DNA from: Pseudodesulfovibrio profundus
GTDB taxonomy: Bacteria > Desulfobacterota > Desulfovibrionia > Desulfovibrionales > Desulfovibrionaceae
Length of the DNA: 64,000 nucleotides
Assembly (NCBI RefSeq): GCF_900217235.1
Contig: NZ_LT907975.1
Location: 124,001 to 188,000, forward strand
Direction: 5' to 3'
Shown here piece after piece: positions 43,509-57,455 of the stretch. The first letter of the stretch is position 1. Every line of letters begins with the position of its first letter. Position numbers and translations under genes: made by a program. The notes beneath the pieces were generated by a model. The model saw nothing but the letters and a program-made list of their open reading frames with translations. It ran no database searches and was not told where the DNA came from.

Positions 43509-44165
43509 CTATGTTATTTCAACTATTTTACCATGTTCGAGGTGGATAGTCCGATCGCTGACTTCTCCAAGCCAGGGCAAATCGTGGCTGGCGATGACGA
43601 GACTGGTGCCATATTGATCTCTTGCGTTGAGCGCAGCCGTTCGTATGAGTTGTGCGCTTTTTGTGTCGAGGCTGGCAGTCGGTTCATCCATCAACAGCAC
43701 CTTGGGTTTGAGAACAAGTCTGGCCGCCAAGGCAACTCGTTGCGCCTCTCCGCCGGATAGTTCAAACCATTGTCGCTGAGAAAATGAATTTGGGTCGAGT
43801 CCGACTTCAACTAATGCGTTGTGTACCTTGGTTGAAATATCGTTTTTCTTTCTGACTCGCAAACCATACGCGATGTTCGCGTATACGGTCCTTTTCAGCA
43901 GGTAAGGTTCCTGAACAAGCAGGGTTGCCTGTCGGTGTACAGCGCCGGGTTTATTGCTTGTTGGAATGCCGCAGAACTCAATGACGCCGGACGTCGGAGA
44001 ATCTATGAAGGCTAGGAGTTTGAGCAAAGTACTTTTGCCAGATCCATTAGGGCCGGCCAACCCTACGATCTCTCCTTCGCCGAGCTCAAGCGTTTCTATG
44101 CTCAGAACTGTACGATTGGAAAAAACCTGCTGAACATTGTCGAGTTTGATGATTGGGGAACTCAT
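43509..44165 (-). CDS. tupC: Tungstate ABC transporter ATP-binding protein
   Basis: A 218-residue ATPase: Walker A GPNGSGKSTLLK, signature LSGGEAQRVALA, Walker B VLLMDEPTASLD. It powers tungstate import with TupB and TupA. The start overlaps the tupB stop by 4 bases. Confidence 0.9.
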   Translation of the reverse strand: MSSPIIKLDNVQQVFSNRTVLSIETLELGEGEIVGLAGPNGSGKSTLLKLLAFIDSPTSGVIEFCGIPTSNKPGAVHRQATLLVQEPYLLKRTVYANIAYGLRVRKKNDISTKVHNALVEVGLDPNSFSQRQWFELSGGEAQRVALAARLVLKPKVLLMDEPTASLDTKSAQLIRTAALNARDQYGTSLVIASHDLPWLGEVSDRTIHLEHGKIVEIT

Positions 44166-44857
44166 TGAACTGCTCTTTTCTTGAGACCAGATGCGGAAAT
44201 ATTCACTATGAGAGCCACGGAAAGAAGAACGATGCCGAGGGCAATGCCGACAGCGAACTCGCCCTTGCCAGTTTCAAGCGCAATGGCTGTTGTGATGGTA
44301 CGCGTGTGCCATTTGATATTACCACCAACCAGCATCGAAATGCCCACTTCCGATACTATGCGACCATAGGCAGCCATGGCTGCAAGCATGATGGAGAACC
44401 GGGCTTCCATGACCGTGGCCCACAGTATCTGTCTTGGGTTTGCCCCAAGAGTGGTCAGGGTCATGGGAAGACGCTTGTCCAGTGTTTCAACGGCGTTGGC
44501 GGTCATGGCGATGATAATAGGCAGTCCCAGCAGGGTTTGACCGATGGCTATGCCTGGCAGAGAAAACAGGAGGCCTGTCCCACCCAGTGGACCATGTCGT
44601 GTCAAAAAAGCATAAACAAGCAGGCCGATAACAACGGTTGGGAATGACAGTAAGGTGTCAACGAGTGTCTTGATTACCCGTTTGCCAAAAAAATTGTTGT
44701 GTCCAAGCATGAACCCGAGGGGAACGCCCAAGGTCAAGCTGAAAAACATGGAAAGACTGGAAGCGCCGACAGTGGCAAGAATTGCAGAGTAGGTCTCAGG
44801 GTCCCCAGTGAATAGAAGAGCAAAACCCTGAAAAAAACCTTGAAGTAAGTAATCCAT
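44162..44857 (-). CDS. tupB: Tungstate ABC transporter permease
   Basis: A 231-residue permease with about six spans and the EAA-type loop near MTLTTLGANPRQILWATVMEAR (start MTLTTLGANP). It sits between tupA and tupC. A strong hairpin lies in the gap upstream. Confidence 0.9.
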   Translation of the reverse strand: MDYLLQGFFQGFALLFTGDPETYSAILATVGASSLSMFFSLTLGVPLGFMLGHNNFFGKRVIKTLVDTLLSFPTVVIGLLVYAFLTRHGPLGGTGLLFSLPGIAIGQTLLGLPIIIAMTANAVETLDKRLPMTLTTLGANPRQILWATVMEARFSIMLAAMAAYGRIVSEVGISMLVGGNIKWHTRTITTAIALETGKGEFAVGIALGIVLLSVALIVNISASGLKKRAVQ

Positions 44858-44873
44858 TAATAATCCTTAAATA

Positions 44874-44901
44874 CCGGGGGAACGATGATCCGTTCCCCCG
44901 G
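44874..44901 (-). promoter_or_regulatory. Intercistronic GC-rich hairpin between tupA and tupB
   Basis: A perfect 11-bp stem (44874-44884 with 44891-44901) around a 6-base loop. No T-run follows on the minus strand, so it is more likely an mRNA-stabilising or partial-attenuation element that raises TupA over TupBC, as often seen after binding-protein genes. Confidence 0.65.
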
Positions 44902-44918
44902 GGGTACTCATACTTGGA

Positions 44919-45743
44919 TTACTTTGCGTTGGGAATAAAAAGCTTCTTGCCAAGGAGTTTGAACTCGCCAATAGCCTTCTGGGTCTCAGGAGTGGCCATC
45001 CAAGCGATGAACTGCTTGGCCAGGTCGTACTGGGCATCCTTGCAATGCTTGGGGTTAACAGCAAGGGCGCTGTACTGGTTGAACAGGACTTTGTCGCCTT
45101 CGACCAGAACTACCAGCGGCGGGTTGCCGTCGTGGTTGTCAGCATATTTGATGAAGGTACCACGGTCAGTCATGGTGTAACCGGACTTCTCGTTGGCAAT
45201 GTTGATGGTGGGGAGCATGCCCTGACCGGTCTGGACGTACCAGGATTCCTTTTCAGGGACAGCCATACCGGCGGACTTCCAAAGAGAAATCTCTTTTTTG
45301 TTGGTGCCGGAGTTGTCGCCGCGGCTGGCGAAGGCTGCGCCTTTTTCCTTGATGGTGGTCAAAGCCTTGGTGACATTCATGCCTTTGACGCCTGCGGGAT
45401 CAGCAGCAGGGCCGATGATGACAAAGTCGTTGTACATGAGTTCTTTGCGATCAATCAGGACACCTTTGTCCATGTACTTCTTTTCAGCGCCGGGAGCGTG
45501 AACAAGTACGACATCAACGTCGCAGTTTTCAGCCATTTTGAGGGCTTTACCGGTGCCGACAGCAACAAACTTGATTTCCACGCCAGCATCTTTCTGGAAC
45601 AGGGGAACAATAAGCTCATCAAGCAGGCCGGTGTTGGCAGTACTTGTGGTGGTAGCCATCATAAGAGTTTTGGAGGCCATTGCCGGCACTGTAAGTGCCA
45701 GAGTGAGAACAAGAGACAATGTAAATGTGACAATGCGTTTCAT
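44919..45743 (-). CDS. tupA: Tungstate-binding periplasmic protein
   Basis: A 274-residue solute-binding protein. A signal peptide ends near residue 24 (VPAMA-SKTL). The TTTST segment after it and the RGDNSGT segment are the oxyanion-binding signatures of TupA. It delivers tungstate to TupBC. The ATG at 45743 has GGGAG 5 bases upstream. The island also codes for AOR and pterin enzymes, which fits tungsten over molybdenum. Confidence 0.93.
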   Translation of the reverse strand: MKRIVTFTLSLVLTLALTVPAMASKTLMMATTTSTANTGLLDELIVPLFQKDAGVEIKFVAVGTGKALKMAENCDVDVVLVHAPGAEKKYMDKGVLIDRKELMYNDFVIIGPAADPAGVKGMNVTKALTTIKEKGAAFASRGDNSGTNKKEISLWKSAGMAVPEKESWYVQTGQGMLPTINIANEKSGYTMTDRGTFIKYADNHDGNPPLVVLVEGDKVLFNQYSALAVNPKHCKDAQYDLAKQFIAWMATPETQKAIGEFKLLGKKLFIPNAK

Positions 45744-45793
45744 AAATACTCCCATATTTGGTTTTTTAATTCCTTTACAATAAAGGCTTATGC

Positions 45794-46180
45794 TTATTCT
45801 GTGTCATCCCGATAGAATTCACCGGATTTCTCAACATCCATTTTTAGGACTTCTTCAGCTTTTTGAGCCGCATATTGTTCAACATCAAGATAGAAATGAA
45901 GGAACTTTTCCATCAACTCTTTTCCAAAAGGTGACAGGTTGAAACGTTGCCCTTTTCCTTTGGTCTTTTCGACAAGCGGTTGACCGATTCTCTCTTCAGC
46001 ATTCTTTAATTTGCCCCAGGCGCGCCTGTAGGACATGCCGAGGGCCTCGGCTGCTTTACGCAGCGAACCGAGTTTCTCGATATGTTGAAGAAGAAGAGTG
46101 CTGCCTATGCCGATATAGATCTGATCTTTTTGCTCGATCCAAACGCGTAATCTGAGTGTTGCCTTGTTAGATTTTGACAT
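45794..46180 (-). CDS. ModE-type HTH transcriptional regulator without ligand domain
   Basis: A 128-residue protein that is only the N-terminal winged-helix part of ModE: LGSLRKAAEALGMSYRRAW is the recognition region. It lacks the molybdate-binding TOBE/DI domains. It is likely the local regulator of the tup operon, which begins 50 bases downstream. How it senses metal is unclear; a short C-terminal helix with Glu/Lys may mediate dimerisation. Start ATG at 46180 with GGGAA upstream. Confidence 0.8.
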   Translation of the reverse strand: MSKSNKATLRLRVWIEQKDQIYIGIGSTLLLQHIEKLGSLRKAAEALGMSYRRAWGKLKNAEERIGQPLVEKTKGKGQRFNLSPFGKELMEKFLHFYLDVEQYAAQKAEEVLKMDVEKSGEFYRDDTE

Positions 46181-46246
46181 AATTTCCCAATATAGTTTTA
46201 GCGTTATCAATAATAGTGAACGCCATCCAAAGCATGTTCGGATGAA

Positions 46247-46293
46247 TATATGCAGGAATCAAACAATTAAGTCAACAATGACATAATAGTCAT
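46247..46293 (-). promoter_or_regulatory. Promoter and palindromic operator of the regulator-tupABC-mobB operon
   Basis: On the minus strand TTGACT (46275-46270), a 17-base spacer and CATATA (46252-46247). Two bases upstream of the -35 lies the inverted repeat ATGAC-N6-GTCAT (46278-46293). The palindrome is well placed for a regulator binding beside RNA polymerase, and the ModE-type gene that follows is the obvious candidate. Confidence 0.5.
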
Positions 46294-46314
46294 GTTTTGA
46301 CACAAATGTTTCAA

Positions 46315-47154
46315 TTAAAGCTGTACTTTTTCGAAAGTATGGGAGTGGAGGTCGACTATGAGCATAGACGACTCCAGTGATGAGGTATGACCTGTGAGAA
46401 TCTTTATGGCTTCGCAAGCCATCAGCGATGCAAAAAGTGAAACGGCGGGGGCAGGACAACCCAGGATTACTTCAGCCGCATTATCGCTTCCCATGATATC
46501 TGCCGGGCCGGTCTGCCCTGGTTGGACTACTCCAACATAGCCGGTCCATCCCGCAAGGGCGCCGGTAACCATTGGAATGTTGGCTTCGGCTGCACTGCGT
46601 TGGAGAGTAAGGCGAGTCTCGAGTCCCCCTAGAGCGTCGATAACCAGATCAGCCCCTTTAACAAAGGTGGGTAGCGAGGTAGCGTCCAGAAATTGTGTTG
46701 CTATCTCGCATTCGACTGAGGGGTTGATTTCGGCAGCTCTGTTTATGGCGGCGCTCGCCTTGTGCGCCCCAAGAGAGTGAACCGTGGACAATGCCTGCCG
46801 ATTGAGATTGGATTCTTCAAAGCTGTCGCCGTCAGCGGTGCGGATTCTTCCGATTCCGGTTCGCAGCAGAATTTCCAGTAGAGTTCCTCCAAGTCCGCCA
46901 AGGCCGACTTGGGCAATCGAAGAATCCAATAACTTGAGTTGATCATTGGCAGTGATGGAATTCATACTGCGAAGATATCGCTTGGGTATGATCCCATTAA
47001 TCAACGCTTCACGCTCAACCTTCCATCCAGGCACGTCGTGGGCCAACGCAATGGAAGCGATGTGGTTCAAGCTGATGAAGAGTCCAGGACTTCCCGCGGG
47101 CAACTCCGTAGGCTCTGCTTTGCCTCGGATGGCTTCAGCCATGTCGGAAGACAA
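46315..47154 (-). CDS. E1-like adenylyltransferase (ThiF/MoeB family)
   Basis: A 279-residue enzyme of the ThiF/MoeB/HesA family. The nucleotide loop GLGGLGGTLLEILLR, DGDSFEESNLNRQ (Asp and Arg-finger region) and SLGAHKASAA are present. It activates the C-terminal Gly-Gly of a MoaD/ThiS partner by adenylation. I see no clear pair of CxxC zinc motifs, so it may be a zinc-less form. It is 3 bases from the MoaD-like gene. Confidence 0.85.
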   Translation of the reverse strand: MSSDMAEAIRGKAEPTELPAGSPGLFISLNHIASIALAHDVPGWKVEREALINGIIPKRYLRSMNSITANDQLKLLDSSIAQVGLGGLGGTLLEILLRTGIGRIRTADGDSFEESNLNRQALSTVHSLGAHKASAAINRAAEINPSVECEIATQFLDATSLPTFVKGADLVIDALGGLETRLTLQRSAAEANIPMVTGALAGWTGYVGVVQPGQTGPADIMGSDNAAEVILGCPAPAVSLFASLMACEAIKILTGHTSSLESSMLIVDLHSHTFEKVQL

Positions 47155-47157
47155 GGT

Positions 47158-47385
47158 TTACCCTCCTCCTACGGGAGGAAATATACCGACCCTGTCCTTA
47201 TCTTTAAGTTCCGTTTCCAGATTGGAACGACATGAGTTCACAAACATAAGCGAGATGTCCTCAACTGGAATGTCGAGTTTCTCTACAATGGACCTGATGG
47301 TTTCTCCTTTTTCAATGGGATAGTCATCACCATTCTCAGGGAGATATTTGGTCAACGTCGCGAATAATTTAATTTCAATACCCAT
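47158..47385 (-). CDS. MoaD/ThiS-family sulfur carrier protein
   Basis: A 75-residue ubiquitin-fold sulfur carrier ending in Gly-Gly-Gly, the site of adenylation and thiocarboxylate formation. PPVGGG is the C-terminal motif. Paired with the E1-like gene and located just after aor, it probably serves the tungstopterin cofactor. Confidence 0.85.
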   Translation of the reverse strand: MGIEIKLFATLTKYLPENGDDYPIEKGETIRSIVEKLDIPVEDISLMFVNSCRSNLETELKDKDRVGIFPPVGGG

Positions 47386-47430
47386 GACTACAATTTAGCC
47401 ATTGAACTGATGTGGGTCAACAAATGACAT

Positions 47431-47458
47431 AAAAAAAGGCCGGGAAAAACCCGGCCTT
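47431..47458 (-). terminator. Rho-independent terminator of aor
   Basis: A 9-bp stem (47436-47444 with 47450-47458) with 5-base loop. On the minus strand seven T follow the stem. It sits between aor and the MoaD-like gene, so most transcripts of aor should end here. Confidence 0.85.
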
Positions 47459-47480
47459 AATTATTGATATGAACTGAGCG

Positions 47481-49208
47481 TTACGCTTTTGCGCCCTGCA
47501 GCTCATTTTCATCAATGTCCCAAGTGACATTGTGAGGGGGCAGTGCTTCGGTCTCAAAGAACCGGGGCAATTTGTCGTCCATCTTGGTGAATCCGGCACG
47601 TTCGTTGAATTCCTGCTCATCCTTCATGCAGTTAACACCGAGGTTGACGAGATCGTCAGCAGTGAAGGTGTTACCCGTGTAGGACTGAACCAGATCAGCC
47701 ATGGTCTGAACGCCGTTTTCAGCATCAAGCACAGCGAATGCTACGAACAGGCAGAAGCCCATGGAGTCGATGGCGGCAGTTGCGACCTGAAGGTTCTTGG
47801 AAAGTTCAACGTTTCCGTCTTTCTTGTGGCCGTCGACAGTTCCACCGACACCGAGAACGTTGGCGGTGACACCGTAACCGGCGGTGTGGTCTGCGCCCAT
47901 TGCAGAGGTGGCATAGGTTACGCCAACACCCTTGACTGCACGAGGATCGTAGGCAGGCATGGACTGATTTTTCACGACCGGAAGACGGTCAACACCGAAA
48001 GCGTGGCCGGCAAAGGTTACACCGTTACCGATGATCATGCCCATGGGATCGCCAGTGCCGACTTTCTTGAGCAGTTCGATGGCAGCTTTGCCGTCACCCC
48101 AGGGGATGATGCCGCCGTCCATGGCGATTGCAATCGTGTTACCGATTTCAATGGTGTCCATGCCCTTGTCATCACAAATGCGATCGAGTTCGGCGATATC
48201 ATCAATATCTTTGATCATGGCGTTAGCGCCAAATGCCCAGACAGTCTCGTACTCAAAGCCGGAAGTGACGTATTCGCCCTTGGCGTTGTTGTACTGCTGG
48301 GAGCACTGGATAACACAACCTGCGTGGCAACCTTCAGTGGTTTTACCTTTGCGGGATTCAATGACTTCGGCGATTTTTTCACCGGAGATATCGGCAGCAT
48401 GGTCAATTTGGCCGAGGCGGAAGTTCTTTGCAGGAAGAGCGCCGGCTTCGTTGATAACGTTAACGAGCACGCAAGTTCCGAATGCAGGAAGGCCCTCGGA
48501 AGTGACCGGATGGCCCTGGAGGATTCCGACCCATTCTTTACGAGCGGTCTTGAAAGCGTCAACGTCGGCAGCTGCAACCTTGTTGTTCACAGCGGGATCA
48601 AGGATGATCGCTTTGACTTTTTTGGAGCCCATGACAGCACCGGTGCCGCCACGACCTGCCGAACGAGCAGGGCGCTTGTATGGATCGGTGAACTGGATGG
48701 TAGCAGTTTGGCGAACAGTTTCACCAGCGGGGCCGATCATCGCTGCGCACAGTTTGTCACCGTACTCTTCGAGCAGCTTGTCGTGGGCCGGGTAGTTGTC
48801 CATTCCGGTGATATCGGAAGCATCCTTAAACTCTACTTTGTCTTCAGAAATAAAAATAGTGGAGAAGGGTGCGTCTTCGGCAGGCTTATCCTCAAGGATG
48901 ATGGCAAGCAGATCCATTTTGGGCATCTTGTGTGCAAACAGGCCGCCGGAGTTGGATTCTTTGATGCCGCCAGTCAAAGGAGACTTGGTACCTACGGAAA
49001 GACGTCCGGAGTTGGCTGCCGTGGAGCCACCAAGAAGACCAGTAGCGAAAACGAGTTTGTTTTCGGCAGACAGCGGATGACAGTCTGCAGGCACTTCCTT
49101 GTTGATGACACGCGAGGTCAGCGCGCGGCCACCCAAGTTGACATAAGGGCCTACGTCTTCAAACGAATACTCTTTGGTTTTCGTATTGATCCTAAGAATT
49201 CTAGGCAT
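47481..49208 (-). CDS. aor: Tungsten-containing aldehyde ferredoxin oxidoreductase
   Basis: A 575-residue enzyme that oxidises aldehydes to acids with ferredoxin. The N-terminal domain (LGGRALTSRVI, and SGRLSVGTKSPLTGG) binds the bis-pterin; the cluster cysteines are in EGCHAGCVIQC (about 300-310) and a later Cys in LVNLGVNCMKDEQEF. It is slightly shorter than the ~605-residue archaeal enzymes. The neighbours for tungstate import and pterin sulfur transfer fit this role. Confidence 0.95.
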   Translation of the reverse strand: MPRILRINTKTKEYSFEDVGPYVNLGGRALTSRVINKEVPADCHPLSAENKLVFATGLLGGSTAANSGRLSVGTKSPLTGGIKESNSGGLFAHKMPKMDLLAIILEDKPAEDAPFSTIFISEDKVEFKDASDITGMDNYPAHDKLLEEYGDKLCAAMIGPAGETVRQTATIQFTDPYKRPARSAGRGGTGAVMGSKKVKAIILDPAVNNKVAAADVDAFKTARKEWVGILQGHPVTSEGLPAFGTCVLVNVINEAGALPAKNFRLGQIDHAADISGEKIAEVIESRKGKTTEGCHAGCVIQCSQQYNNAKGEYVTSGFEYETVWAFGANAMIKDIDDIAELDRICDDKGMDTIEIGNTIAIAMDGGIIPWGDGKAAIELLKKVGTGDPMGMIIGNGVTFAGHAFGVDRLPVVKNQSMPAYDPRAVKGVGVTYATSAMGADHTAGYGVTANVLGVGGTVDGHKKDGNVELSKNLQVATAAIDSMGFCLFVAFAVLDAENGVQTMADLVQSYTGNTFTADDLVNLGVNCMKDEQEFNERAGFTKMDDKLPRFFETEALPPHNVTWDIDENELQGAKA

Positions 49209-49940: not shown

Positions 49941-50276
49941 TTACTGACAACCAATGGTGCCAGAATAGGATTCCAGTTCATCGGAGTATTTTTCAAACCG
50001 TTTTTGGTTCCAGATGTCTTCACGAATAATTTGAGTCCGATTATCGTGTAAGCCGCGTCGAATTTTGGTACACACTGAATCTTTTTCTTGTTGCGGCATG
50101 CTTTCCAAATTATCGCCATAGCTATCCATAGTCGAAATGTAGGCCTTTTTGGCAATGCGATAATTTGATTCTGCCTGATACCGTAATGAGCGTCCGATAT
50201 TATCGGATGCCAGGGCTGATGATGCGCCCAAGCAAAACATTGCAAGTAAACAAGACAGTAGAAGCTTCTTATTCAT
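49941..50276 (-). CDS. Small exported protein, 111 residues
   Basis: A signal peptide ends near residue 24 (ASSALA-SDN), followed by an ~87-residue helical, charged domain with two Cys (in DSVCTKIRR and at the extreme end) that could form a disulfide. The start ATG at 50276 has GGAGG 4 bases upstream. Family unknown; periplasmic by signal. Confidence 0.75.
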   Translation of the reverse strand: MNKKLLLSCLLAMFCLGASSALASDNIGRSLRYQAESNYRIAKKAYISTMDSYGDNLESMPQQEKDSVCTKIRRGLHDNRTQIIREDIWNQKRFEKYSDELESYSGTIGCQ

Positions 50277-50373
50277 AATTCCTCCACTCATGGGTTTTAC
50301 TGAACTTAACCGATATGGGTTGATTAGGGAACATGACAACGGAGTGATTCACTGGGGTATGATCCATTGAAAC

Positions 50374-50572: not shown

Positions 50573-52678
50573 TTATGCCAGCTTCACGCAGTCATCGCCT
50601 GTGCACACTTCATCTTCACCCATGTCTCGATTGTAGCAGGTGAGTCCGCATCGCAGGCATCTGCATGTTTCGTGTTTGGTTTCTTCTTCTGTCAGCGTTC
50701 CTTCAATTTCCTCAAATGAGCATGTCCGCTCGTCGCATTCGATCAAATGGGGCATTTCAGCTCGTTTGCGGAGCCCAACATCTGGGACATTAGTGAACAT
50801 GGTATACGGGATCAATTCGCGTTGTATGTCTGTAGGATAGTGAAGGGAGCCTTCTGTCAAATACTGATGGATGGATCGCGCCGCCTTTCTGCCTTCACCC
50901 AGGGCTGTGATGACAAGGGCTGGACCTGTGTGCATATCGCCACCTGTGAACACATGTGGCATGGCTGTTTGCAGGGTGTCTGGATGGGCGTCCAGGGTCC
51001 TCCACTTGGTTTCGTTCAGTTTACATGTCCCGGATTCGTCATACAGGCATGATAGTTCAGGCTTTTGGCCGATTGCCGTATAAACCGTGTCACACTCGAT
51101 GAGCGTTTCAGACCCTTCGATGGGGATTGGGCGACGTCTGCCAGAGTCGTCGGGTTCACCCAGTTCCATCTTGATGTATTCCACGTGGGTCACATGACCA
51201 TCGTCGTCCGTCAGAATTCGCTTGGGGGCAGCAAGTAGGAGATAGTGCACAGTCTCTTCTTCCGCTCCAACGATTTCTTCGATATTGGCGGGCATTTCAT
51301 CTCTTGTACGGCGGTACATGAGAGTGACATCTGCACCAAGCCTGACACTGGATCGAGCTGTATCAATAGCGGTGTTACCACCTCCAATGACAACAACTTT
51401 CTTACCGATCCCGGTTTCCATTCCCAGGCCGACTTTAGTCAGGAACTCAGTGCCAGTTTCTACCCCCTCAGCCTCTTCTCCCTCAATGCGGAGGGTGAGA
51501 TTCATCCAAGCACCGATTCCGAGGAAGACTGCTTCGAATCCTTCTTCCTGAAGTGTGTTTAGTGAAAAGTCTGTCCCAAATTTCTGGCTGCATTTAGTTT
51601 CGATACCAAGGTCAAGAATGCCTTGTATTTCCCAATCTAGAACATCTTTGGGCAGTCGGTATTCAGGAATGCCGTAGCGAAGCTGGCCGCCGAGTTTAGG
51701 CATTGATTCATAAATGGTCGGGCTATGACCAAGGCGTCGCAAATAGAAAGCACAGGCAATTCCTGCGGGCCCACCACCAACGATGGCGACCTTTCGTCCT
51801 GTATCCGACGCACAGGGGATTGGAAGGCGTCTTCCAGAGTTCATTTCCCAATCGGCGACAAAGCGTTTGATCATGTTGATGCCAATTGCTTCTTCAACAT
51901 GCTTTCGTCGACAAACTCCTTCACAAGGGTGCGGGCAGACTCGTCCAATGGACAGAGGCATGGGGATGCGTTCACGAATTGTTTCCAGCGCTCCGGCATA
52001 ATCACCACGCGAAACCTGTTCAATGTAGCGGGGGATATTGATCTGGCCCGGGCACTTTTGTCTGCACGGTGCAAGGCAGTCCGTATTTCGATTCAGATGA
52101 GTGATGCGGGCTGACTGTCCCCAGATGGTTATGACTCCGCGAGGGCATACAACAGCACAACCGTTGCAGGCAGTACAAAGCTCGGGGTCAACAATGGGGT
52201 ATCCTTGTGGGCCCATTTCAATGGCGCCGAACTGACATGCATCCACACAGGTGCCATACCCCAGGCATCCCTCGGGACACATCTTGTTGCCTCGATACAG
52301 CAGATTCTGCGCACGGCAGTCGGGAACACCTTCATAGTCGTAAATATCTTCGGCGCGTATGCCGCCAGTGCAGTCGACAAAGGCGATTTGACGTTCCATG
52401 GAGGAGAACTCAAGTCCCATGATTTCTGCCACTTTGACTGCGATCTCATCACCGCCGATGACGCAAACTGTTGCTCCTGCCTTGCCGTCAATGACTCCTT
52501 GTGCCGCGGCCGCGCATCCGGGGAACCCACAACCTCCACAGTTGGCACCGGCGAGGACGGATTCGACCTGGGCGATACGTGGGTCTTCATATACGTACAG
52601 GACCTTGGAAGCGACAGCGAGAACAACCGCGGCTGTGAATCCTATGCCCAATAATACGAGAACGGATGAAACAATCAT
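50573..52678 (-). CDS. rnfB: RnfB fused to a GltD-type NADPH/FAD oxidoreductase
   Basis: A 701-residue fusion. Residues 1-~185 are RnfB: an N-terminal span (~5-24), the C47-x2-C50-x4-C55-x16-C72 FeS domain, and two 4Fe-4S ferredoxin motifs (CPEGCLGYGTC region and CTACNGCAVVC). Residues ~200-620 are a glutamate-synthase small-subunit-like flavoprotein: Cys-rich linker, FAD loop GGGPAG (301-306), NADPH loop GGGNTA (432-437) and YRR (455-457), which favours NADPH. The last ~50 residues add five or six cysteines (CRCLRCGLTC, then CTGDDC). Normal RnfB is ~190-300 residues. It probably moves electrons from ferredoxin or the membrane core to a pyridine nucleotide. Confidence 0.9.
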   Translation of the reverse strand: MIVSSVLVLLGIGFTAAVVLAVASKVLYVYEDPRIAQVESVLAGANCGGCGFPGCAAAAQGVIDGKAGATVCVIGGDEIAVKVAEIMGLEFSSMERQIAFVDCTGGIRAEDIYDYEGVPDCRAQNLLYRGNKMCPEGCLGYGTCVDACQFGAIEMGPQGYPIVDPELCTACNGCAVVCPRGVITIWGQSARITHLNRNTDCLAPCRQKCPGQINIPRYIEQVSRGDYAGALETIRERIPMPLSIGRVCPHPCEGVCRRKHVEEAIGINMIKRFVADWEMNSGRRLPIPCASDTGRKVAIVGGGPAGIACAFYLRRLGHSPTIYESMPKLGGQLRYGIPEYRLPKDVLDWEIQGILDLGIETKCSQKFGTDFSLNTLQEEGFEAVFLGIGAWMNLTLRIEGEEAEGVETGTEFLTKVGLGMETGIGKKVVVIGGGNTAIDTARSSVRLGADVTLMYRRTRDEMPANIEEIVGAEEETVHYLLLAAPKRILTDDDGHVTHVEYIKMELGEPDDSGRRRPIPIEGSETLIECDTVYTAIGQKPELSCLYDESGTCKLNETKWRTLDAHPDTLQTAMPHVFTGGDMHTGPALVITALGEGRKAARSIHQYLTEGSLHYPTDIQRELIPYTMFTNVPDVGLRKRAEMPHLIECDERTCSFEEIEGTLTEEETKHETCRCLRCGLTCYNRDMGEDEVCTGDDCVKLA

Positions 52679-52686
52679 GGAATCTC

Positions 52687-53262
52687 CTAAGAGGCCATAC
52701 CTTTGAATGCAAAGAAAGTTAACGACATGAGTCCTGCCATGATGAGAGCGAGCGGGGTCCCCTTGAGACTGACGGGAACTCTGGATAGATCAAGACGCTC
52801 GCGTATCCCGGCGAGTACAACAAGGGCCAGCATGAAACCTGCTCCGGATGCAATGGAGAATATGATGGTTTCGAGAAGCGTGTACTCTTCGCGTTGACAG
52901 ATGATGGCTATACCCAGCACGGCACAGTTCGTTGTGATGAGAGGGAGAAAAATGCCAAGTGATTTGTAGAGCGGCGGGATAACTTTTTTGAGAAACATTT
53001 CAACAAATTGTACAAGTGCCGCAATAACAAGGATGAAGCAAATGGTCTGGAGATAGGCCAGGTCATTGGGGCCGAGCAGATACTTCTGCACACACCAGGT
53101 GATGCTTGCCGCCATTGTCGCGACAAATACGACGGCCAGTCCCATGCCGATGGCCACCCCGGACTCTTTTGATGTGCCAATGAACGGGCAGTTGCCGAGA
53201 TACTGCGCAAGGACAATATTATTGACAAATATGGCGGCGATAACGAGGACGAAATAATCCAT
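52687..53262 (-). CDS. rnfA: Rnf complex membrane subunit A
   Basis: A 191-residue six-span protein with the typical start FVNNIVLAQYLGNCPFIG and the second NCAVLGIAI, whose cysteines coordinate a membrane iron centre with RnfE. Nearest relative to NqrE/RsxA. It lies 9 bases after rnfE and 8 before rnfB. Confidence 0.95.
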   Translation of the reverse strand: MDYFVLVIAAIFVNNIVLAQYLGNCPFIGTSKESGVAIGMGLAVVFVATMAASITWCVQKYLLGPNDLAYLQTICFILVIAALVQFVEMFLKKVIPPLYKSLGIFLPLITTNCAVLGIAIICQREEYTLLETIIFSIASGAGFMLALVVLAGIRERLDLSRVPVSLKGTPLALIMAGLMSLTFFAFKGMAS

Positions 53263-53271
53263 GGCAGTTCC

Positions 53272-53949
53272 TTATATAGCCGGTTTTTTGGCGCACAAGC
53301 CGCAGGTTTTACAATCGTGAACAGGGCCTTCTACTGCATCAAGGCCGCGTGTTTTACGTTGCCAGTTTGTGAATGCATTCATACCCGCCAGCATCAAACC
53401 AAGACAGACAAAAGCCCCGGGCGCTTCAACCATGAAGGAGAACGGCTCGAACCATCCTCCCATGACTTCAAGGCCAAACCATGTTCCATATCCGAAGAGT
53501 TCACGAATGGAGCCGAGCAGTGTCAGAGAAATGGTGAAACCTATGCCCATACCCAGTCCATCGGCTACCGCCAGGTAGACAGGGTTTTTAGAGGCAAAAG
53601 CCTCGGCTCGACCAAGTATGATGCAGTTAACGACAATCAGCGGAACGAAAATACCGAGCTGTTGATACAGCGGATAGGCGTAAGCTTGCATAAGGAGTTC
53701 GACGCAAACGACAAGGGAGGCTGCTACAACGATAAAGCAGGCGATACGGACTTTTGCCGGGATGAGATTACGTAGCAGCGAGACCAGTAGATTGGAAAAT
53801 GTCAGGACGAAAATGACGGCCATCCCCATGCCAAAACCATTATACGCGGTTTTCGTTACAGCCAGTACCGGACACAGGCCAAGTACTACCTTGAATGGCG
53901 GCAGATCGGTCCACAATCCTTTGGAGAACTCTTTCCACAATAAACTCAT
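53272..53949 (-). CDS. rnfE: Rnf complex membrane subunit E
   Basis: A 225-residue six-span partner of RnfA: LGLCPVLAVTKTA and NCIILGRAEAFA are the paired half-sites carrying the conserved cysteines. The C-terminus adds a short soluble tail ending in CKTCGLCAKKPAI (three Cys), unlike most RnfE proteins. The ribosome site GAGGG precedes the ATG. Confidence 0.93.
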   Translation of the reverse strand: MSLLWKEFSKGLWTDLPPFKVVLGLCPVLAVTKTAYNGFGMGMAVIFVLTFSNLLVSLLRNLIPAKVRIACFIVVAASLVVCVELLMQAYAYPLYQQLGIFVPLIVVNCIILGRAEAFASKNPVYLAVADGLGMGIGFTISLTLLGSIRELFGYGTWFGLEVMGGWFEPFSFMVEAPGAFVCLGLMLAGMNAFTNWQRKTRGLDAVEGPVHDCKTCGLCAKKPAI

Positions 53950-53958
53950 ATCTTACCC

Positions 53959-54537
53959 TCAAGATCCCCAGGCTGTGGGAATATCTTCCTTCAATTGATT
54001 GAAAATCGTTATGGCTTCATTGACTGCGGAGATTGTTGCAGTCGATGTAATCGTGGCTCCGGCAATAGCTTGTATCTGACCACCATTTCGAGCCAATGCG
54101 ATAGAGTCAGTGGAGTGTTGCTGGAACTGGTCACGAAATTCTGCTTCAGATGCACGAGCGCCCAGGCCAGGGGTTTCCTTCATGGTTGTAATGCCTATCC
54201 CTGATATGCGTGAACCATCTATTGATATGCCCACCATGACGCCGACGGGGCCGCCGTACCCTGTACCGAAACGCTCAAAGGCGACACCGGTCAACTTGCC
54301 ATTGCTCATGGCCGGGAAAACCGTGATTGGGCCATCTGCCAGATCAAAGGTTTTACGGTCTTTTACCGGATTATTGTCATATTCCGTGAAAACCTGGCTG
54401 ATTGCCGGCCCTTGAACATAGGTCAGCACCTGTTCTTCGATCTTTTCCTTGGTTGCCTCTCGAACCGTCGCAAGGGTCAGGCCAGACAAGCCGCAAATGA
54501 GCGACAGTACGAGAACCATCTTCAGCATTTCTCGCAT
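53959..54537 (-). CDS. rnfG: Rnf complex subunit G (covalent FMN)
   Basis: A 192-residue protein with an N-terminal span and an FMN-binding domain. The flavin-attachment motif reads AGATITST (about residues 158-165), matching S/TGATxxS/T. ApbE would add the FMN, but no apbE gene lies in this window. The start overlaps rnfD by 16 bases; GGAGG is 9-10 bases upstream inside rnfD. Confidence 0.93.
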   Translation of the reverse strand: MREMLKMVLVLSLICGLSGLTLATVREATKEKIEEQVLTYVQGPAISQVFTEYDNNPVKDRKTFDLADGPITVFPAMSNGKLTGVAFERFGTGYGGPVGVMVGISIDGSRISGIGITTMKETPGLGARASEAEFRDQFQQHSTDSIALARNGGQIQAIAGATITSTATISAVNEAITIFNQLKEDIPTAWGS

Positions 54538-55526
54538 ATTTCATCATCCTCCGGCTCTTGTGTCAGTTGGTAAGGTCCGCCAAATGGTTTGGGACGGATA
54601 CGATCAAGCAGCGGTGTAAACAGGTTGGCAAAAAGAATGGCAAACGGAACACCGTCGGGGTAAATGCCGTATACTCGAATGATGATAACCATCGCGCCGC
54701 CCATCAGCCCATAAATCAGTGACGGGATTCTTCCTGTTGGTGAGGAGGCCGGTTCGGTCATGAGGAAGAATGCACCGAACAGCGTTCCGCCAGTCATCAA
54801 GTGGAAGAGTGGGGAGGCATAGGTAACCGGATCTATCATCTGGAAAATCCATGCTGTCAGGGCGACACCACCGAGGAAGGCCATGGGGATTTCCCAACCT
54901 ATGTGACGCCTGACCAGCAGGAATGCTGCACCAAGAAGTAAGGCAGCAAGCTGAACCTCGCCAAGCCCTCCCAGTTGCTTACCTGAAAGCATAGCCATGT
55001 AGTCGATTGATTGAATGGATTCCAAACCGAAGTATTTCAAATCCTGAAGAGGGGCAGGGAGGTTGGACATAAGCATGGTTGCATTGGTGTCCATGAAACT
55101 TCCCCATGAGATACGGCAAGTTGCCCAACCGACAAGTGGAGCGCACAATGGGTTGGCTCCGAGTCCGCCAAAAATCATTTTCCCCAGAATGATTGATGAT
55201 GCCGATCCGAGTGTGACCAGCCACCACGGTGCCGATGCTGGCAGTAAAAAGGCAAAAAGCAAGCCTGTATGGACGGCACTGAGATTGTCTATGGATTGTT
55301 CTGTCTTGGTGAATTTGTTGCACATCGCTTCACAGAGAACCGCAACCGCACAGGATAAAGCCATGACTCGCATGGCCCCAACGCCAAAGCCGACCATTGC
55401 CATGATAGCCGCAGGCAGCATGGCGATTAGTGTTTCTCTTATGTAGCCGTTAATGGTTCGCCCACAGTGAGCGTACGGGGCAACGGTAACCGTCAGTATT
55501 GGCTGAAATGGTAGGATTATTTTCAT
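54522..55526 (-). CDS. rnfD: Rnf complex membrane subunit D
   Basis: A 334-residue membrane protein with ~9 spans. The SAVHTGLLFAFLLP and FFLMTEPASSPTGR segments identify RnfD. The expected flavin-attachment S/TGAT(P) motif in the central loop is not seen; that loop reads SIDYMAMLSGKQLGGLGE. Its start overlaps rnfC by 4 bases. Confidence 0.9.
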   Translation of the reverse strand: MKIILPFQPILTVTVAPYAHCGRTINGYIRETLIAMLPAAIMAMVGFGVGAMRVMALSCAVAVLCEAMCNKFTKTEQSIDNLSAVHTGLLFAFLLPASAPWWLVTLGSASSIILGKMIFGGLGANPLCAPLVGWATCRISWGSFMDTNATMLMSNLPAPLQDLKYFGLESIQSIDYMAMLSGKQLGGLGEVQLAALLLGAAFLLVRRHIGWEIPMAFLGGVALTAWIFQMIDPVTYASPLFHLMTGGTLFGAFFLMTEPASSPTGRIPSLIYGLMGGAMVIIIRVYGIYPDGVPFAILFANLFTPLLDRIRPKPFGGPYQLTQEPEDDEICEKC

Positions 55527-56695
55527 TGGCCTTCTCCTTCCAGCGTGCTTGAGGCGGTTCTGAGAAGGGCAATTTCATACTTTGCCAGCTTTATATACTG
55601 CAGCAACGGACGTTGGGCTTTGCACCAATATCCGCAAATGCCACATTCAATACATGAGTGAATGTGATAATCCTCCGCTCGTTCAAAGTGCTTGAATTCC
55701 GCACATCTGCTTATGAGGCCGGGCATGATGCGGGCCGGACAATGGCGTTCGCATTCTCCACAACCGAGGCAGAAGTTGTCAGTGGGGGATAGCCCCTCGT
55801 CATGTCGAAGGATAATCATGCCGGTCGTATATTTATCGACCCCCTGATCTATGTTGAGCGCTGCTACGCCGCGCATCAGGCCTCCGAATATGACGCGATC
55901 CCCAGGCTGGACAGTTACCCCTGCTTCTTGGGCCAGGTGCCGAATCTGAGTGCCGATCTTGATCAAATGGTTGTCCTTGCCGATTGTCATGATTGTTTCA
56001 GTGAGAGGGCGCTTCGTTTCCATCACTTTCCCGATGTAGTAGAGATCGCGAATAGAAAGAATTGTGGCGTCTTTCGGGCGTGTCCCCAAGAGTGTCTCTT
56101 CTCCGGTGGTGGCCTTGATGACAAGTTGATCTATGCCATTAGGGTACACTGGTGGAACTTGAAGAATGGAACAATTGGGAAAAGCATTGGTCCTGTTGCC
56201 CTTGGCTACCACCAGGTGGAGCTTGGAAGGGTTGACGATCCGCTGCACTGCGTCGAGTCCCAGTTCGACGATATGTCTATAGTCCTGAATAAGGGGTTCA
56301 TAAATGGAAATTCCTGGCTCTGGCGGGACGGCATTAATGATTAACTGCGAGGCGCGAACCAACTGATACGTGTTGATGCCAAGTCCACGAAGCCATTCTC
56401 TGAGGGCTTTCCCTCCGCTTGGAGGAGCAGAGTCCGGGGTGTTTTGCCCGGTACCCGATCGGCGAACTACGATGGCGTCAACTGTTATATCCTCTATTTT
56501 CCCGGCAGCAGGGGAGTGAACATCTCCGACTCCGGGTCGCGTTGCCTCTGCAATTTTTTCATCCGCGAGTACTTCATCTCCTTCAGACACAATGGATTTA
56601 TGTGTCGGCGTAGGAATGCTGAAAGTCTCCGGAGCATTTAATGTGACTAATGGACCGGTTTCTCCGGTAAGCAGGCTGAAGCTAAATGTTGTCAT
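55523..56695 (-). CDS. rnfC: Rnf complex peripheral subunit C, shortened
   Basis: A 390-residue RnfC. The N-terminal biotinyl-like segment and the two 4Fe-4S motifs are kept (C309, C312, C315, C319 and C348, C351, C354, C358). Where canonical RnfC has a glycine-rich FMN/NADH segment (GMGGAxFP and NGAECEPY), this protein reads LRGLGINTYQLVRA then NAVPPEPGIS. The nucleotide/flavin site therefore seems lost. The stop overlaps the rnfD start by 4 bases. Confidence 0.9.
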   Translation of the reverse strand: MTTFSFSLLTGETGPLVTLNAPETFSIPTPTHKSIVSEGDEVLADEKIAEATRPGVGDVHSPAAGKIEDITVDAIVVRRSGTGQNTPDSAPPSGGKALREWLRGLGINTYQLVRASQLIINAVPPEPGISIYEPLIQDYRHIVELGLDAVQRIVNPSKLHLVVAKGNRTNAFPNCSILQVPPVYPNGIDQLVIKATTGEETLLGTRPKDATILSIRDLYYIGKVMETKRPLTETIMTIGKDNHLIKIGTQIRHLAQEAGVTVQPGDRVIFGGLMRGVAALNIDQGVDKYTTGMIILRHDEGLSPTDNFCLGCGECERHCPARIMPGLISRCAEFKHFERAEDYHIHSCIECGICGYWCKAQRPLLQYIKLAKYEIALLRTASSTLEGEGQ

Positions 56696-56708: not shown

Positions 56709-57455
56709 CTAGTTCATGTGGCATTTGTCGCAGTTTTCGTCACCGTAGGGGCCAGCATCCATGGTTTCGTGACATCCTCTGCACTGACCGTGGAAAGCAA
56801 CTGTCGTGGTGGGGATAAGTTGGTCGATGCTTTCCTCATGACAGCTTGAGCACGCTTCTTGATCGGCAGTTTTCTGTTCTTTTTGCTCGTTGCGAACATG
56901 GCAGTAGCCACATCCTTCGACGCCCTGATCGAACATGTCATCGTGACAACTTGCGCAACGTGTGTGGTTTGCAACCTTCAGGCTGGGGATGTCGTCTTTC
57001 CCTTCTTTCTGGTGGCAGTTTGAGCATGCCTGTGGCTCTGGCTCAATGGATTCATCGTGATGGCATGATTGACAGTCACTGTCTGCATAATCGAGGGCGT
57101 GGTCGTCATGAGTAAATCTGTCGATGTTGGAATCTGCATGGTGGCAACTTGCACACTGTTTGTCATCGAACTGCGTGGGGTGTTCGATGATGAAAGTCTC
57201 GTCAAACGTTTTTACGTGGCAGCTTTTACAAGCAATCGGATCGTCATCTTTTAAGGTCGTATGATGACATGTGACACATTGGTCATCTTGAATGGAAATA
57301 TGGGTTTCGTGGGTGAATATTACATTTCCTCCTTTATTGGGAAGGAGGATACGCACGGGTTGCGCAGAACTCTCCAGAGGAATCAGGTATCCGGCAATCG
57401 CAGTGATCAGCAATATTCCAGTCAGTATGGCAATGGGAAAGTAACGTCTGTGCAA
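56709..57455 (-). CDS. Decaheme cytochrome c, first gene of the rnf operon
   Basis: A 248-residue exported or membrane-anchored cytochrome. An N-terminal span (~6-24) precedes ten CxxCH haem sites (the first CVTCHH, the last CDKCHMN). It belongs with the multihaem cytochrome found at the head of desulfovibrio rnf operons and probably links Rnf to the periplasmic cytochrome c3 pool. The start is the TTG at 57455 with GAGG 8 bases upstream; the nearby ATG is out of frame. It lies 13 bases upstream of rnfC. Confidence 0.9.
   Translation of the reverse strand: MHRRYFPIAILTGILLITAIAGYLIPLESSAQPVRILLPNKGGNVIFTHETHISIQDDQCVTCHHTTLKDDDPIACKSCHVKTFDETFIIEHPTQFDDKQCASCHHADSNIDRFTHDDHALDYADSDCQSCHHDESIEPEPQACSNCHQKEGKDDIPSLKVANHTRCASCHDDMFDQGVEGCGYCHVRNEQKEQKTADQEACSSCHEESIDQLIPTTTVAFHGQCRGCHETMDAGPYGDENCDKCHMN

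What the first reader, a model, noticed from the sequence alone, without database searches (positions are those of the whole stretch)
50573..52678. RnfB fused to a complete NADPH/FAD oxidoreductase
Seen: RnfB modules (TM, FeS domain, two ferredoxin motifs) run without a stop into a GltD-like protein with FAD and NADPH loops (GGGPAG at 301-306, GGGNTA at 432-437, YRR at 455-457) and a further Cys-rich tail. Known: canonical RnfB ends after the ferredoxin motifs, and NADH is handled by RnfC. Inference: this Rnf reduces or oxidises NADP(H), perhaps by electron bifurcation in the manner of Nfn.
Basis: partly seen in the sequence, partly recalled or inferred. Interest (0 to 1): 0.65.

Follow-up and report, generated by a model that had tools for sequence, protein, structure and literature searches.

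The report
NADPH-linked Rnf pump in sulfate reducers
In this sulfate-reducing bacterium one subunit of the Rnf membrane electron pump is fused to an NADPH-oxidising enzyme while the usual NADH site is gone, so the pump probably exchanges electrons between NADPH and cytochromes outside the membrane; the fusion itself had been reported before in related bacteria.

Summary
The fusion is real: a 701-aa ORF on the MINUS strand, last gene of an operon decaheme cyt c-rnfC-D-G-E-A-B. It is not an artefact: full-length fusions occur in 67 of 297 genomes of the class. It is not new: a ~700-aa RnfB with an RnfC lacking the NADH domain is published as "Rnf2" of Desulfobacteraceae (PMC5109826, PMC11887813).

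Added here is a cofactor-by-cofactor reading. In 51 fused operons RnfC lacks the FMN/NADH loop (0/51) and RnfD lacks residues that hold its FMN (Arg 0/51, Thr 3/51). RnfG's FMN anchor and the RnfA/E and RnfC cysteines are kept in 51/51. The return path to NAD looks dismantled. Best model: NADPH-FAD-FeS(RnfB)-RnfA/E-FMN(RnfG)-periplasmic cytochrome c.

The NADPH module has the Lys ligand of non-bifurcating StnC, not the Glu of NfnB, which argues against Nfn-type bifurcation. In 18 of 51 fused operons the NADPH motif is degenerate. The short RnfB of Desulfovibrio-vulgaris-type operons looks like a later replacement; tree tests are mixed.

No activity has been measured. Strongest contrary fact: the cytochrome gene dhcA was dispensable in D. 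alaskensis.

The parts
50573..52678 (-). rnfB fused to NADPH/FAD oxidoreductase, 701 aa
52601..52675 (-). N-terminal membrane helix of RnfB, residues 2-26
   Evidence: helix in AlphaFold model; N-terminal match to RnfB models
52460..52555 (-). RnfB 4Fe-4S domain (Pfam FeS), residues 42-73
   Evidence: Cys 47, 50, 55, 72 invariant in A1
52127..52279 (-). RnfB ferredoxin domain with two cluster motifs, residues 134-184
51836..52099 (-). Fer4_20 cluster domain, residues 194-281
51866..51868 (-). Lys271, at the position of StnC Lys170 and the NfnB Glu cluster ligand
51761..51778 (-). FAD loop GGGPAG, residues 301-306
50891..51793 (-). FAD/NADPH double Rossmann domain, residues 296-596
51368..51385 (-). 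NADPH loop GGGNTA, residues 432-437
51308..51316 (-). YRR, residues 455-457 (2'-phosphate binding by homology, recalled)
50636..50659 (-). C-terminal Cys tail, C674-C681
   Evidence: aligned with the tails of 9bov, 9n5u and 8oh5
52687..53262 (-). rnfA
   Evidence: Cys pair kept
53272..53949 (-). rnfE, with a C-terminal CKTCGLC extension
53959..54537 (-). rnfG, FMN-attachment motif AGATITST kept
   Evidence: (NF045876 RnfG_DVU2794)
54522..55526 (-). rnfD lacking FMN-site residues
55053..55055 (-). RnfD Ala158 at the FMN-Thr position (Thr153 in C. tetanomorphum)
55125..55127 (-). RnfD Trp134 at the position of Arg130
54645..54647 (-). RnfD Pro294 at the position of Ser284
55523..56695 (-). rnfC, 390 aa, 2x[4Fe-4S] cysteines kept, FMN/NADH loop absent
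56350..56380 (-). approximate place in rnfC where G[ML]GGA[TA]FP is deleted
56709..57455 (-). decaheme c-type cytochrome, 248 aa, 10 CxxCH

Best explanation
This is an Rnf2-type complex. NADPH is handled by the FAD domain fused to RnfB. Two electrons from NADPH pass FAD, then the Fer4_20 clusters and the RnfB ferredoxin clusters, then the RnfA/RnfE metal site inside the membrane, then the FMN covalently held by RnfG on the outside, and leave to the operon's own decaheme cytochrome and the periplasmic cytochrome c3 pool. The second half of the classical Rnf route (FMN of RnfD, then RnfC with FMN and NAD) has been dismantled. Ferredoxin may still enter at RnfB. The reaction is reversible in principle, and ion movement would be coupled to the remaining steps. 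Shown here from sequence: the fusion, the intact NADPH/FAD motifs, the loss of the RnfC loop and of RnfD flavin residues, retention of the RnfG anchor and the RnfA/E cysteines, and the adjacent cytochrome gene. Inferred: NADPH specificity, electron order, the periplasmic exit, and ion coupling.
For: The fused part matches StnC, NfnA and NfnL structures (VIA Z 48.2, 47.2 and 39.5) and keeps GGGPAG, GGGNTA and YRR. In the solved C. tetanomorphum Rnf, electrons cross by RnfB, RnfAE, FMN-RnfG, FMN-RnfD (Thr153; contacts Arg130, Ser284), RnfC clusters, FMN-RnfC and NAD (PMC9588780, passages). In 51 fused operons: RnfC loop 0, RnfD Arg 0, Ser 0, Thr 3; RnfG Thr/Ser 51, RnfA Cys pair 51, RnfE Cys pair 51, RnfC eight Cys 51, cytochrome found nearby 41. 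In 30 short-RnfB operons with the RnfC loop: Thr in 27 of 27 with a letter there, Arg in 27 of 27. Lys271 and Arg341 match StnC Lys170 and Arg239, where FAD feeds a linear cluster chain. A form without the membrane part but with ferredoxin plus NADPH modules lies in one run of genes with a 2-oxoacid:acceptor oxidoreductase, as expected of a ferredoxin/NADPH unit. The own genome has no RnfC over the family cut-off and one ApbE flavin transferase. In D. alaskensis attempts to show ferredoxin:NAD coupling in vesicles were unsuccessful (PMC4841214, passage), a weak point.
Against: In D. [quoted passage not shown] PMC4841214). If that operon is of this type, another cytochrome must take the electrons or the exit is elsewhere. 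RnfC keeps eight cluster cysteines in 51/51, so it probably still carries electrons. RnfD might hold flavin without a covalent bond. Ser is not strict even in the 30 canonical operons (20 of 27 with a letter), so its loss says little; the case rests on Thr and Arg. 10 of 51 fused operons show no cytochrome in the fetched stretch. 18 of 51 fused proteins have a degenerate NADPH motif, so NADPH cannot be the donor for all. PMC11887813 describes Rnf2 as linking NADH with ferredoxin/NADP. The 51 operons are related to one another and are not independent cases. Nothing was assayed.
Confidence: 0.5

Rival explanations
1. NADP-linked loop pump: electrons still run from RnfG through RnfD (flavin bound without a covalent bond) to the RnfC clusters and on to an unknown cytoplasmic partner such as ferredoxin, so the complex is an NADPH:ferredoxin (or other) oxidoreductase with no periplasmic exit.
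For: RnfC cluster cysteines kept in 51/51; rnf genes but not dhcA important in G20; PMC5109826 says RnfC needs an acceptor other than NAD.
Against: Three described FMN-RnfD residues are replaced in the window and Arg in 51/51, Thr in 48/51; cytochrome gene beside 41 of 51.
Confidence: 0.27
2. Nfn-like flavin-based bifurcation: NADPH electrons split at the fused FAD, one to the RnfB ferredoxin clusters and one to a higher-potential acceptor.
For: Same fold as bifurcating NfnL/NfnB (Z 39.5); the module belongs to that family.
Against: Lys271 at the position of the NfnB Glu ligand, as in non-bifurcating StnC; no NfnA-like subunit in the operon; Arg341 matches StnC Arg239.
Confidence: 0.06
3. The fused domain is a local ferredoxin:NADP reductase: RnfB docks ferredoxin and passes electrons to NADP inside the same subunit, the membrane part being mainly an anchor or a separate branch.
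For: A free-standing ferredoxin plus NADPH-module protein shares a run of genes with a 2-oxoacid:acceptor oxidoreductase.
Against: RnfA, E, D and G are kept, with the RnfA/E cysteines and RnfG anchor in 51/51, which an anchor would not need.
Confidence: 0.12

Closest known systems
Rnf2 of Desulfobacteraceae (D. toluolica Tol2 type, D. multivorans rnf2)
   Same: ~700-aa RnfB with NAD(P)-binding part, RnfC without the NADH domain, small cytochrome in the cluster (PMC5109826, section read; PMC11887813, passages)
   Different: Here in the lineage of Pseudodesulfovibrio (nearest named record) with a decaheme cytochrome; PMC11887813 assigns Rnf1 to Desulfovibrionaceae
Desulfovibrio vulgaris/alaskensis Rnf with DhcA
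   Different: RnfB is short: 30.9 kDa in D. vulgaris (PMC10920352); the named operons themselves were not read here
StnC of the Stn transhydrogenase (8oh5_C)
   Same: GltD-like NADPH/FAD module, Lys cluster ligand, Arg239 equivalent, C-terminal Cys tail
   Different: StnC is soluble and fused to a NuoG-like part; Cys114 is Ile215 here
NfnB/NfnL (5jca_L)
   Same: Fold and cofactor loops
   Different: Glu cluster ligand and NfnA partner absent here
Methanosarcina acetivorans Rnf with its multiheme cytochrome
   Same: Rnf plus multiheme c-type cytochrome (PMC12174285, passage)
   Different: No NADPH module known to me there (recalled); not compared in sequence here

Membership tests
Rnf2 (large-RnfB Rnf) | RnfB of ~700 aa with NAD(P)-binding part behind the ferredoxin domains | tested here: met
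   701 aa
Rnf2 (large-RnfB Rnf) | RnfC without the NADH-oxidoreductase domain | tested here: met
   no Complex1_51K match; loop absent
Rnf2 (large-RnfB Rnf) | direct sequence identity to the D. toluolica Tol2 complex | not tested
   that sequence was not fetched; nearest named records were L058 (Pseudodesulfovibrio sp.) and L060 (Desulfosarcina alkanivorans)
Classical Rnf (ferredoxin:NAD oxidoreductase) | six subunits RnfABCDGE | tested here: met
Classical Rnf (ferredoxin:NAD oxidoreductase) | FMN/NADH loop of RnfC | tested here: not met
Classical Rnf (ferredoxin:NAD oxidoreductase) | FMN-attachment Thr in RnfD | tested here: not met
   Ala158
Classical Rnf (ferredoxin:NAD oxidoreductase) | FMN-attachment Thr in RnfG | tested here: met
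   AGATITST
Classical Rnf (ferredoxin:NAD oxidoreductase) | ferredoxin:NAD activity | not testable with these tools
   needs the enzyme
Nfn bifurcating transhydrogenase | NfnB-like FAD/NADPH subunit | tested here: met
Nfn bifurcating transhydrogenase | Glu ligand of the FAD-proximal cluster | tested here: not met
   Lys271
Nfn bifurcating transhydrogenase | NfnA partner encoded with it | tested here: not met
   operon holds only cyt c and rnf genes
StnC-type NADPH module | Lys at the FAD-proximal cluster | tested here: met
StnC-type NADPH module | Cys114 alternate ligand | tested here: not met
   Ile215 in the alignment; the paper reports Val or Ile in two homologues

The most novel reading that the evidence does not exclude
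A whole branch of Rnf has lost its return path and become a transmembrane link between cytoplasmic NADPH or ferredoxin and periplasmic cytochrome c. In this branch RnfB is an exchangeable input cassette: the NADPH-fused form is the older state, the lineage of the model organisms D. vulgaris and D. alaskensis later swapped in a ferredoxin-only RnfB, and two further groups of fused RnfB lost the NADPH motif and take electrons from a donor not yet known.
Probability: 0.35. Interest if true: 0.75.

Novelty: new member of a known kind. Interest (0 to 1): 0.48.

Why it matters
Rnf of sulfate reducers is often written as a ferredoxin:NAD pump, and Rnf2 as a pump of unknown acceptor. If the cofactor reading is right, neither Rnf2 nor the D. 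vulgaris-type complex can work by the classical route, which changes the energy budget of a large group of marine sulfate reducers. It also gives simple tests: which subunits carry flavin, and does NADPH reduce cytochrome c. It bears on a published statement that many Desulfovibrionaceae lost rnfB and have a FAD-dependent oxidoreductase instead (PMC11434368, passages): in the fused operons examined here the oxidoreductase carries the RnfB domains at its own N-terminus. The genomes of that paper were not checked one by one.

Tried and rejected
Sequencing artefact or frameshift: rejected, full-length fusions in 67 of 297 genomes of the class. One exception, L072 (Salidesulfovibrio brasiliensis), is split into two ORFs and was dropped from counts.

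First motif test was wrong: the pattern GGAGFP missed canonical RnfC. It was replaced by G[x]GGA[TGAS][FYW]P after the solved RnfC sequences were seen. Results that limit the claim: six loci (L251-L255, L258) lack the loop but keep RnfD Thr (L258 has no RnfB in its stretch and is not among the 106 operons). Five short-RnfB operons (L245-L249) lack loop, Thr and Arg. L250 was scored as short, but its RnfB runs into the contig end, so its type is unknown. So the fused operons all show the losses, but the losses also occur without the fusion.

Sampling limits: fused operons were picked by RnfB, so their RnfC and RnfD states are not selected. Of the 30 short-RnfB/loop operons 26 come from the best TIGR01945 hits, and the 14 D. 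vulgaris-type operons were picked by similarity to the window's RnfC, so the loop state of those two sets is biased. Those 26 loci are under 6 kb, so the absence of cytochrome there says nothing, and RnfG could be read in only 3 of the 30, RnfE in 4 (2 of these with Ala at the second Cys). Cytochromes were found by similarity to the window's cytochrome, so counts are minimum values. The NADPH-motif call is a plain pattern test (GGGN[TS]A and YRR). The loci L146-L174 of the genome search are short stretches of genomes most of which were fetched again in longer form; they were left out of the counts.

Tree limits: core tree (RnfD, G, E, A; 42 rows): all fused rows as one clade is rejected (p-AU 9.9e-37), and so is the fused rows plus L245/L248/L250 with the D. 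vulgaris type outside (1.9e-70); but holding only the Desulfovibrionaceae fused rows together gives p 0.032. RnfB N-domain (190 columns, 58 rows): fused rows alone as one clade p 0.0145, which comes from L250; with L250 added they are one side of a branch in the best tree, support 97. Fused plus D. vulgaris type as one clade p 0.006, with L250 added 0.018; Desulfovibrionaceae fused plus D. vulgaris type 0.068. Groups were named after a first tree was seen, so p values are optimistic; all trees were quick ones. A swap is likely, not shown.

Linking to G20 genetics: a published G20 primer was sought in 288 genomes of the family and found in 0, so the G20 operon itself was not read here. PDB structure comparison covered residues 200-645 for most rows; the RnfB part had low confidence. 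Pereira 2011 was not held; the D. toluolica paper was seen only through PMC5109826.

Full report
Observation. The feature is on the minus strand, 50573-52678, a single 701-aa ORF. Pfam and NCBIfam split it into an RnfB part (residues 1 to about 198) and a GltD/NfnB-like part (about 194-685). It closes an operon read leftwards: cytochrome c (56709-57455), rnfC, rnfD, rnfG, rnfE, rnfA, rnfB. The cytochrome has ten CxxCH motifs in 248 aa.

How common. A search of 297 genomes of the class gave at least one full-length match in 67, including 34 of 34 genomes of the genus, own counted (hand count). A search of 395 genomes drawn from the phylum printed full-length matches in 43, own counted, a minimum because the row list was cut. 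Nearest named record: Pseudodesulfovibrio sp. (L058, 79% identity); named relatives further out include Desulfosarcina alkanivorans (L060).

Already in print. PMC5109826 (section read) reports, after work on Desulfobacula toluolica Tol2, an RnfB of about 700 aa with NAD-binding sites and an RnfC lacking the NADH domain, and says the mode of action awaits verification. PMC11887813 (passages) calls it Rnf2, places it in the core genome of Desulfobacteraceae, and says it is abundantly formed in six strains. That Rnf with its cytochrome may link periplasmic cytochrome c with cytoplasmic NAD(P)H or ferredoxin is also in print as an idea (PMC4287179, passages; PMC10920352, passages). Paper searches showed me no test of the RnfD flavin site in these complexes; I saw listings and passages, not whole papers, so this is not proof of absence.

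The NADPH module. The best structural matches of the AlphaFold model (mean pLDDT 79.8) are NfnABC from Caldicellulosiruptor, NfnABC from Thermococcus and StnC of Sporomusa (Z 49.8, 48.5, 48.2 over 468-473 residues), then NfnL (Z 39.5 over 403). StnC carries electrons from NADPH through FAD to a linear cluster chain, and its FAD is described as non-bifurcating; its FAD-proximal cluster is held by Lys170 where NfnB has Glu (PMC10482914, passages). The window protein has Lys271 in that column and Arg341 at StnC Arg239; Cys114 is Ile215. So it works more like StnC than like NfnB. The C-terminal tail (C674, C677, C681) aligns with the tails of 9bov, 9n5u and 8oh5. My reading that it replaces the N-terminal RCLxC cluster motif of NfnL is inference from recall.

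What the rest of the complex has lost. The solved Rnf of C. tetanomorphum gives the route RnfB, RnfAE, FMN-RnfG, FMN-RnfD, riboflavin, RnfC clusters, FMN-RnfC, NAD (PMC9588780, passages). I scored 106 operons in which RnfB, RnfC and RnfD lie together on one strand. Fused RnfB (51 operons): RnfC loop 0, RnfD Thr 3, Arg 0, Ser 0; RnfG Thr or Ser 51, RnfA Cys pair 51, RnfE Cys pair 51, RnfC eight Cys 51; cytochrome with 4-10 hemes found in 41. Short RnfB with RnfC loop (30): Thr in 27 of 27 with a letter, Arg in 27 of 27, Ser in 20 of 27. D. vulgaris-type short RnfB (14): loop 0, Thr 0, Arg 0, RnfG Thr 14, cytochrome 14. Other short RnfB without loop (10): 5 keep Thr and Arg, 5 do not. One operon, L250, has its RnfB cut by the contig end and cannot be placed. 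The three fused operons with Thr (L205, L207, L208) have Trp and Phe in place of Arg and Ser. Selection effects are given under Tried and rejected.

Mechanism. Put together, the flavin sites of the return branch appear to be gone while those of the outward branch are intact. The simplest product is a transmembrane link from NADPH (and perhaps ferredoxin) to the periplasm, with the operon's decaheme cytochrome as partner. D. alaskensis data speak against a strict role of that cytochrome: dhcA was dispensable where rnf genes were needed (PMC4215793, passages). RnfC keeps its cluster cysteines in 51/51, so a role in electron transfer remains likely and is unexplained.

Three kinds of fused RnfB. 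In one search, besides the window kind (GGGNTA, YRR, Lys271), one group in Desulfovibrionaceae has GD[ST]NTA or GDTNAA, no YRR, His/Gln/Glu at position 271 and five-heme cytochromes. A second group at 33-40% identity has scattered loops and keeps Lys271. In one search, 33 of 51 pass the plain NADPH-motif test and 18 do not. The 18 probably do not use NADPH; their donor is unknown.

History. In the RnfB N-domain tree the fused rows (with L250) are one side of a branch (support 97), which fits one origin of the fusion in this sample. In the tree of RnfD, G, E and A the D. vulgaris-type operons lie inside the fused ones, while in the RnfB N-domain tree they group with canonical short RnfB. This suggests that their RnfB was swapped in. 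The tests are not uniform (p-AU 1.9e-70 and 0.032 for the core; 0.006, 0.018 and 0.068 for RnfB), and the groups were chosen after a first tree. I hold it as likely, not shown. D. vulgaris RnfB is 30.9 kDa and RnfC 43.5 kDa (PMC10920352), which fits the short type.

A free-standing form. In L222, L230 and L051 a ~600-aa protein with the ferredoxin and NADPH parts but without the first ~98 residues lies in a run of genes which in L222 was recognised by family search as 2-oxoacid:acceptor oxidoreductase subunits and succinyl-CoA ligase. It supports reading the two parts as one ferredoxin/NADPH unit.

Verdict. Observation confirmed; NADP(H) inference supported by homology; bifurcation not supported; fusion already known as Rnf2. 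The new part is the cofactor reading and the history, both open to direct test.

Noticed in passing
L222:8861-10657, L230:8898-10694, L051:8510-10312: About 600-aa protein with ferredoxin and NADPH modules but no membrane helix, in one run of genes with a 2-oxoacid:acceptor oxidoreductase and succinyl-CoA ligase (named by family search in L222 only); probably a soluble ferredoxin:NADP reductase.
   Followed up: partly
L044, L045, L046, L052-L055, L057: Second fused RnfB group with GD[ST]NTA or GDTNAA in place of GGGNTA, no YRR, and His/Gln/Glu at position 271, beside five-heme cytochromes; donor unknown.
   Followed up: partly
L062, L063, L083, L086, L220, L221, L223, L236-L243: A further fused group at 33-40% identity with scattered NADPH loops but Lys271 kept.
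   Followed up: partly
L251-L255, L258: Rnf loci whose RnfC lacks the FMN/NADH loop although RnfD keeps its FMN Thr; no cytochrome found.
   Followed up: no
window 53293-53313 (-), C-terminus of RnfE: CKTCGLC extension of RnfE; similar CxxCGxC or related Cys tails stand in several Desulfovibrionaceae operons aligned, and not in the other rows shown there.
   Followed up: no
window 49941-50339 (-): Small protein with a signal-peptide-like stretch directly downstream of rnfB.
   Followed up: no
window 43509-49208 (-): ORFs that look like an ABC transporter, a ModE-like regulator, a ThiF/MoeB-like protein and an aldehyde ferredoxin oxidoreductase next to the rnf operon; names recalled from the sequence, not searched.
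   Followed up: no
L072:3132-5245: Salidesulfovibrio brasiliensis record in which the fused rnfB is split into two ORFs.
   Followed up: no
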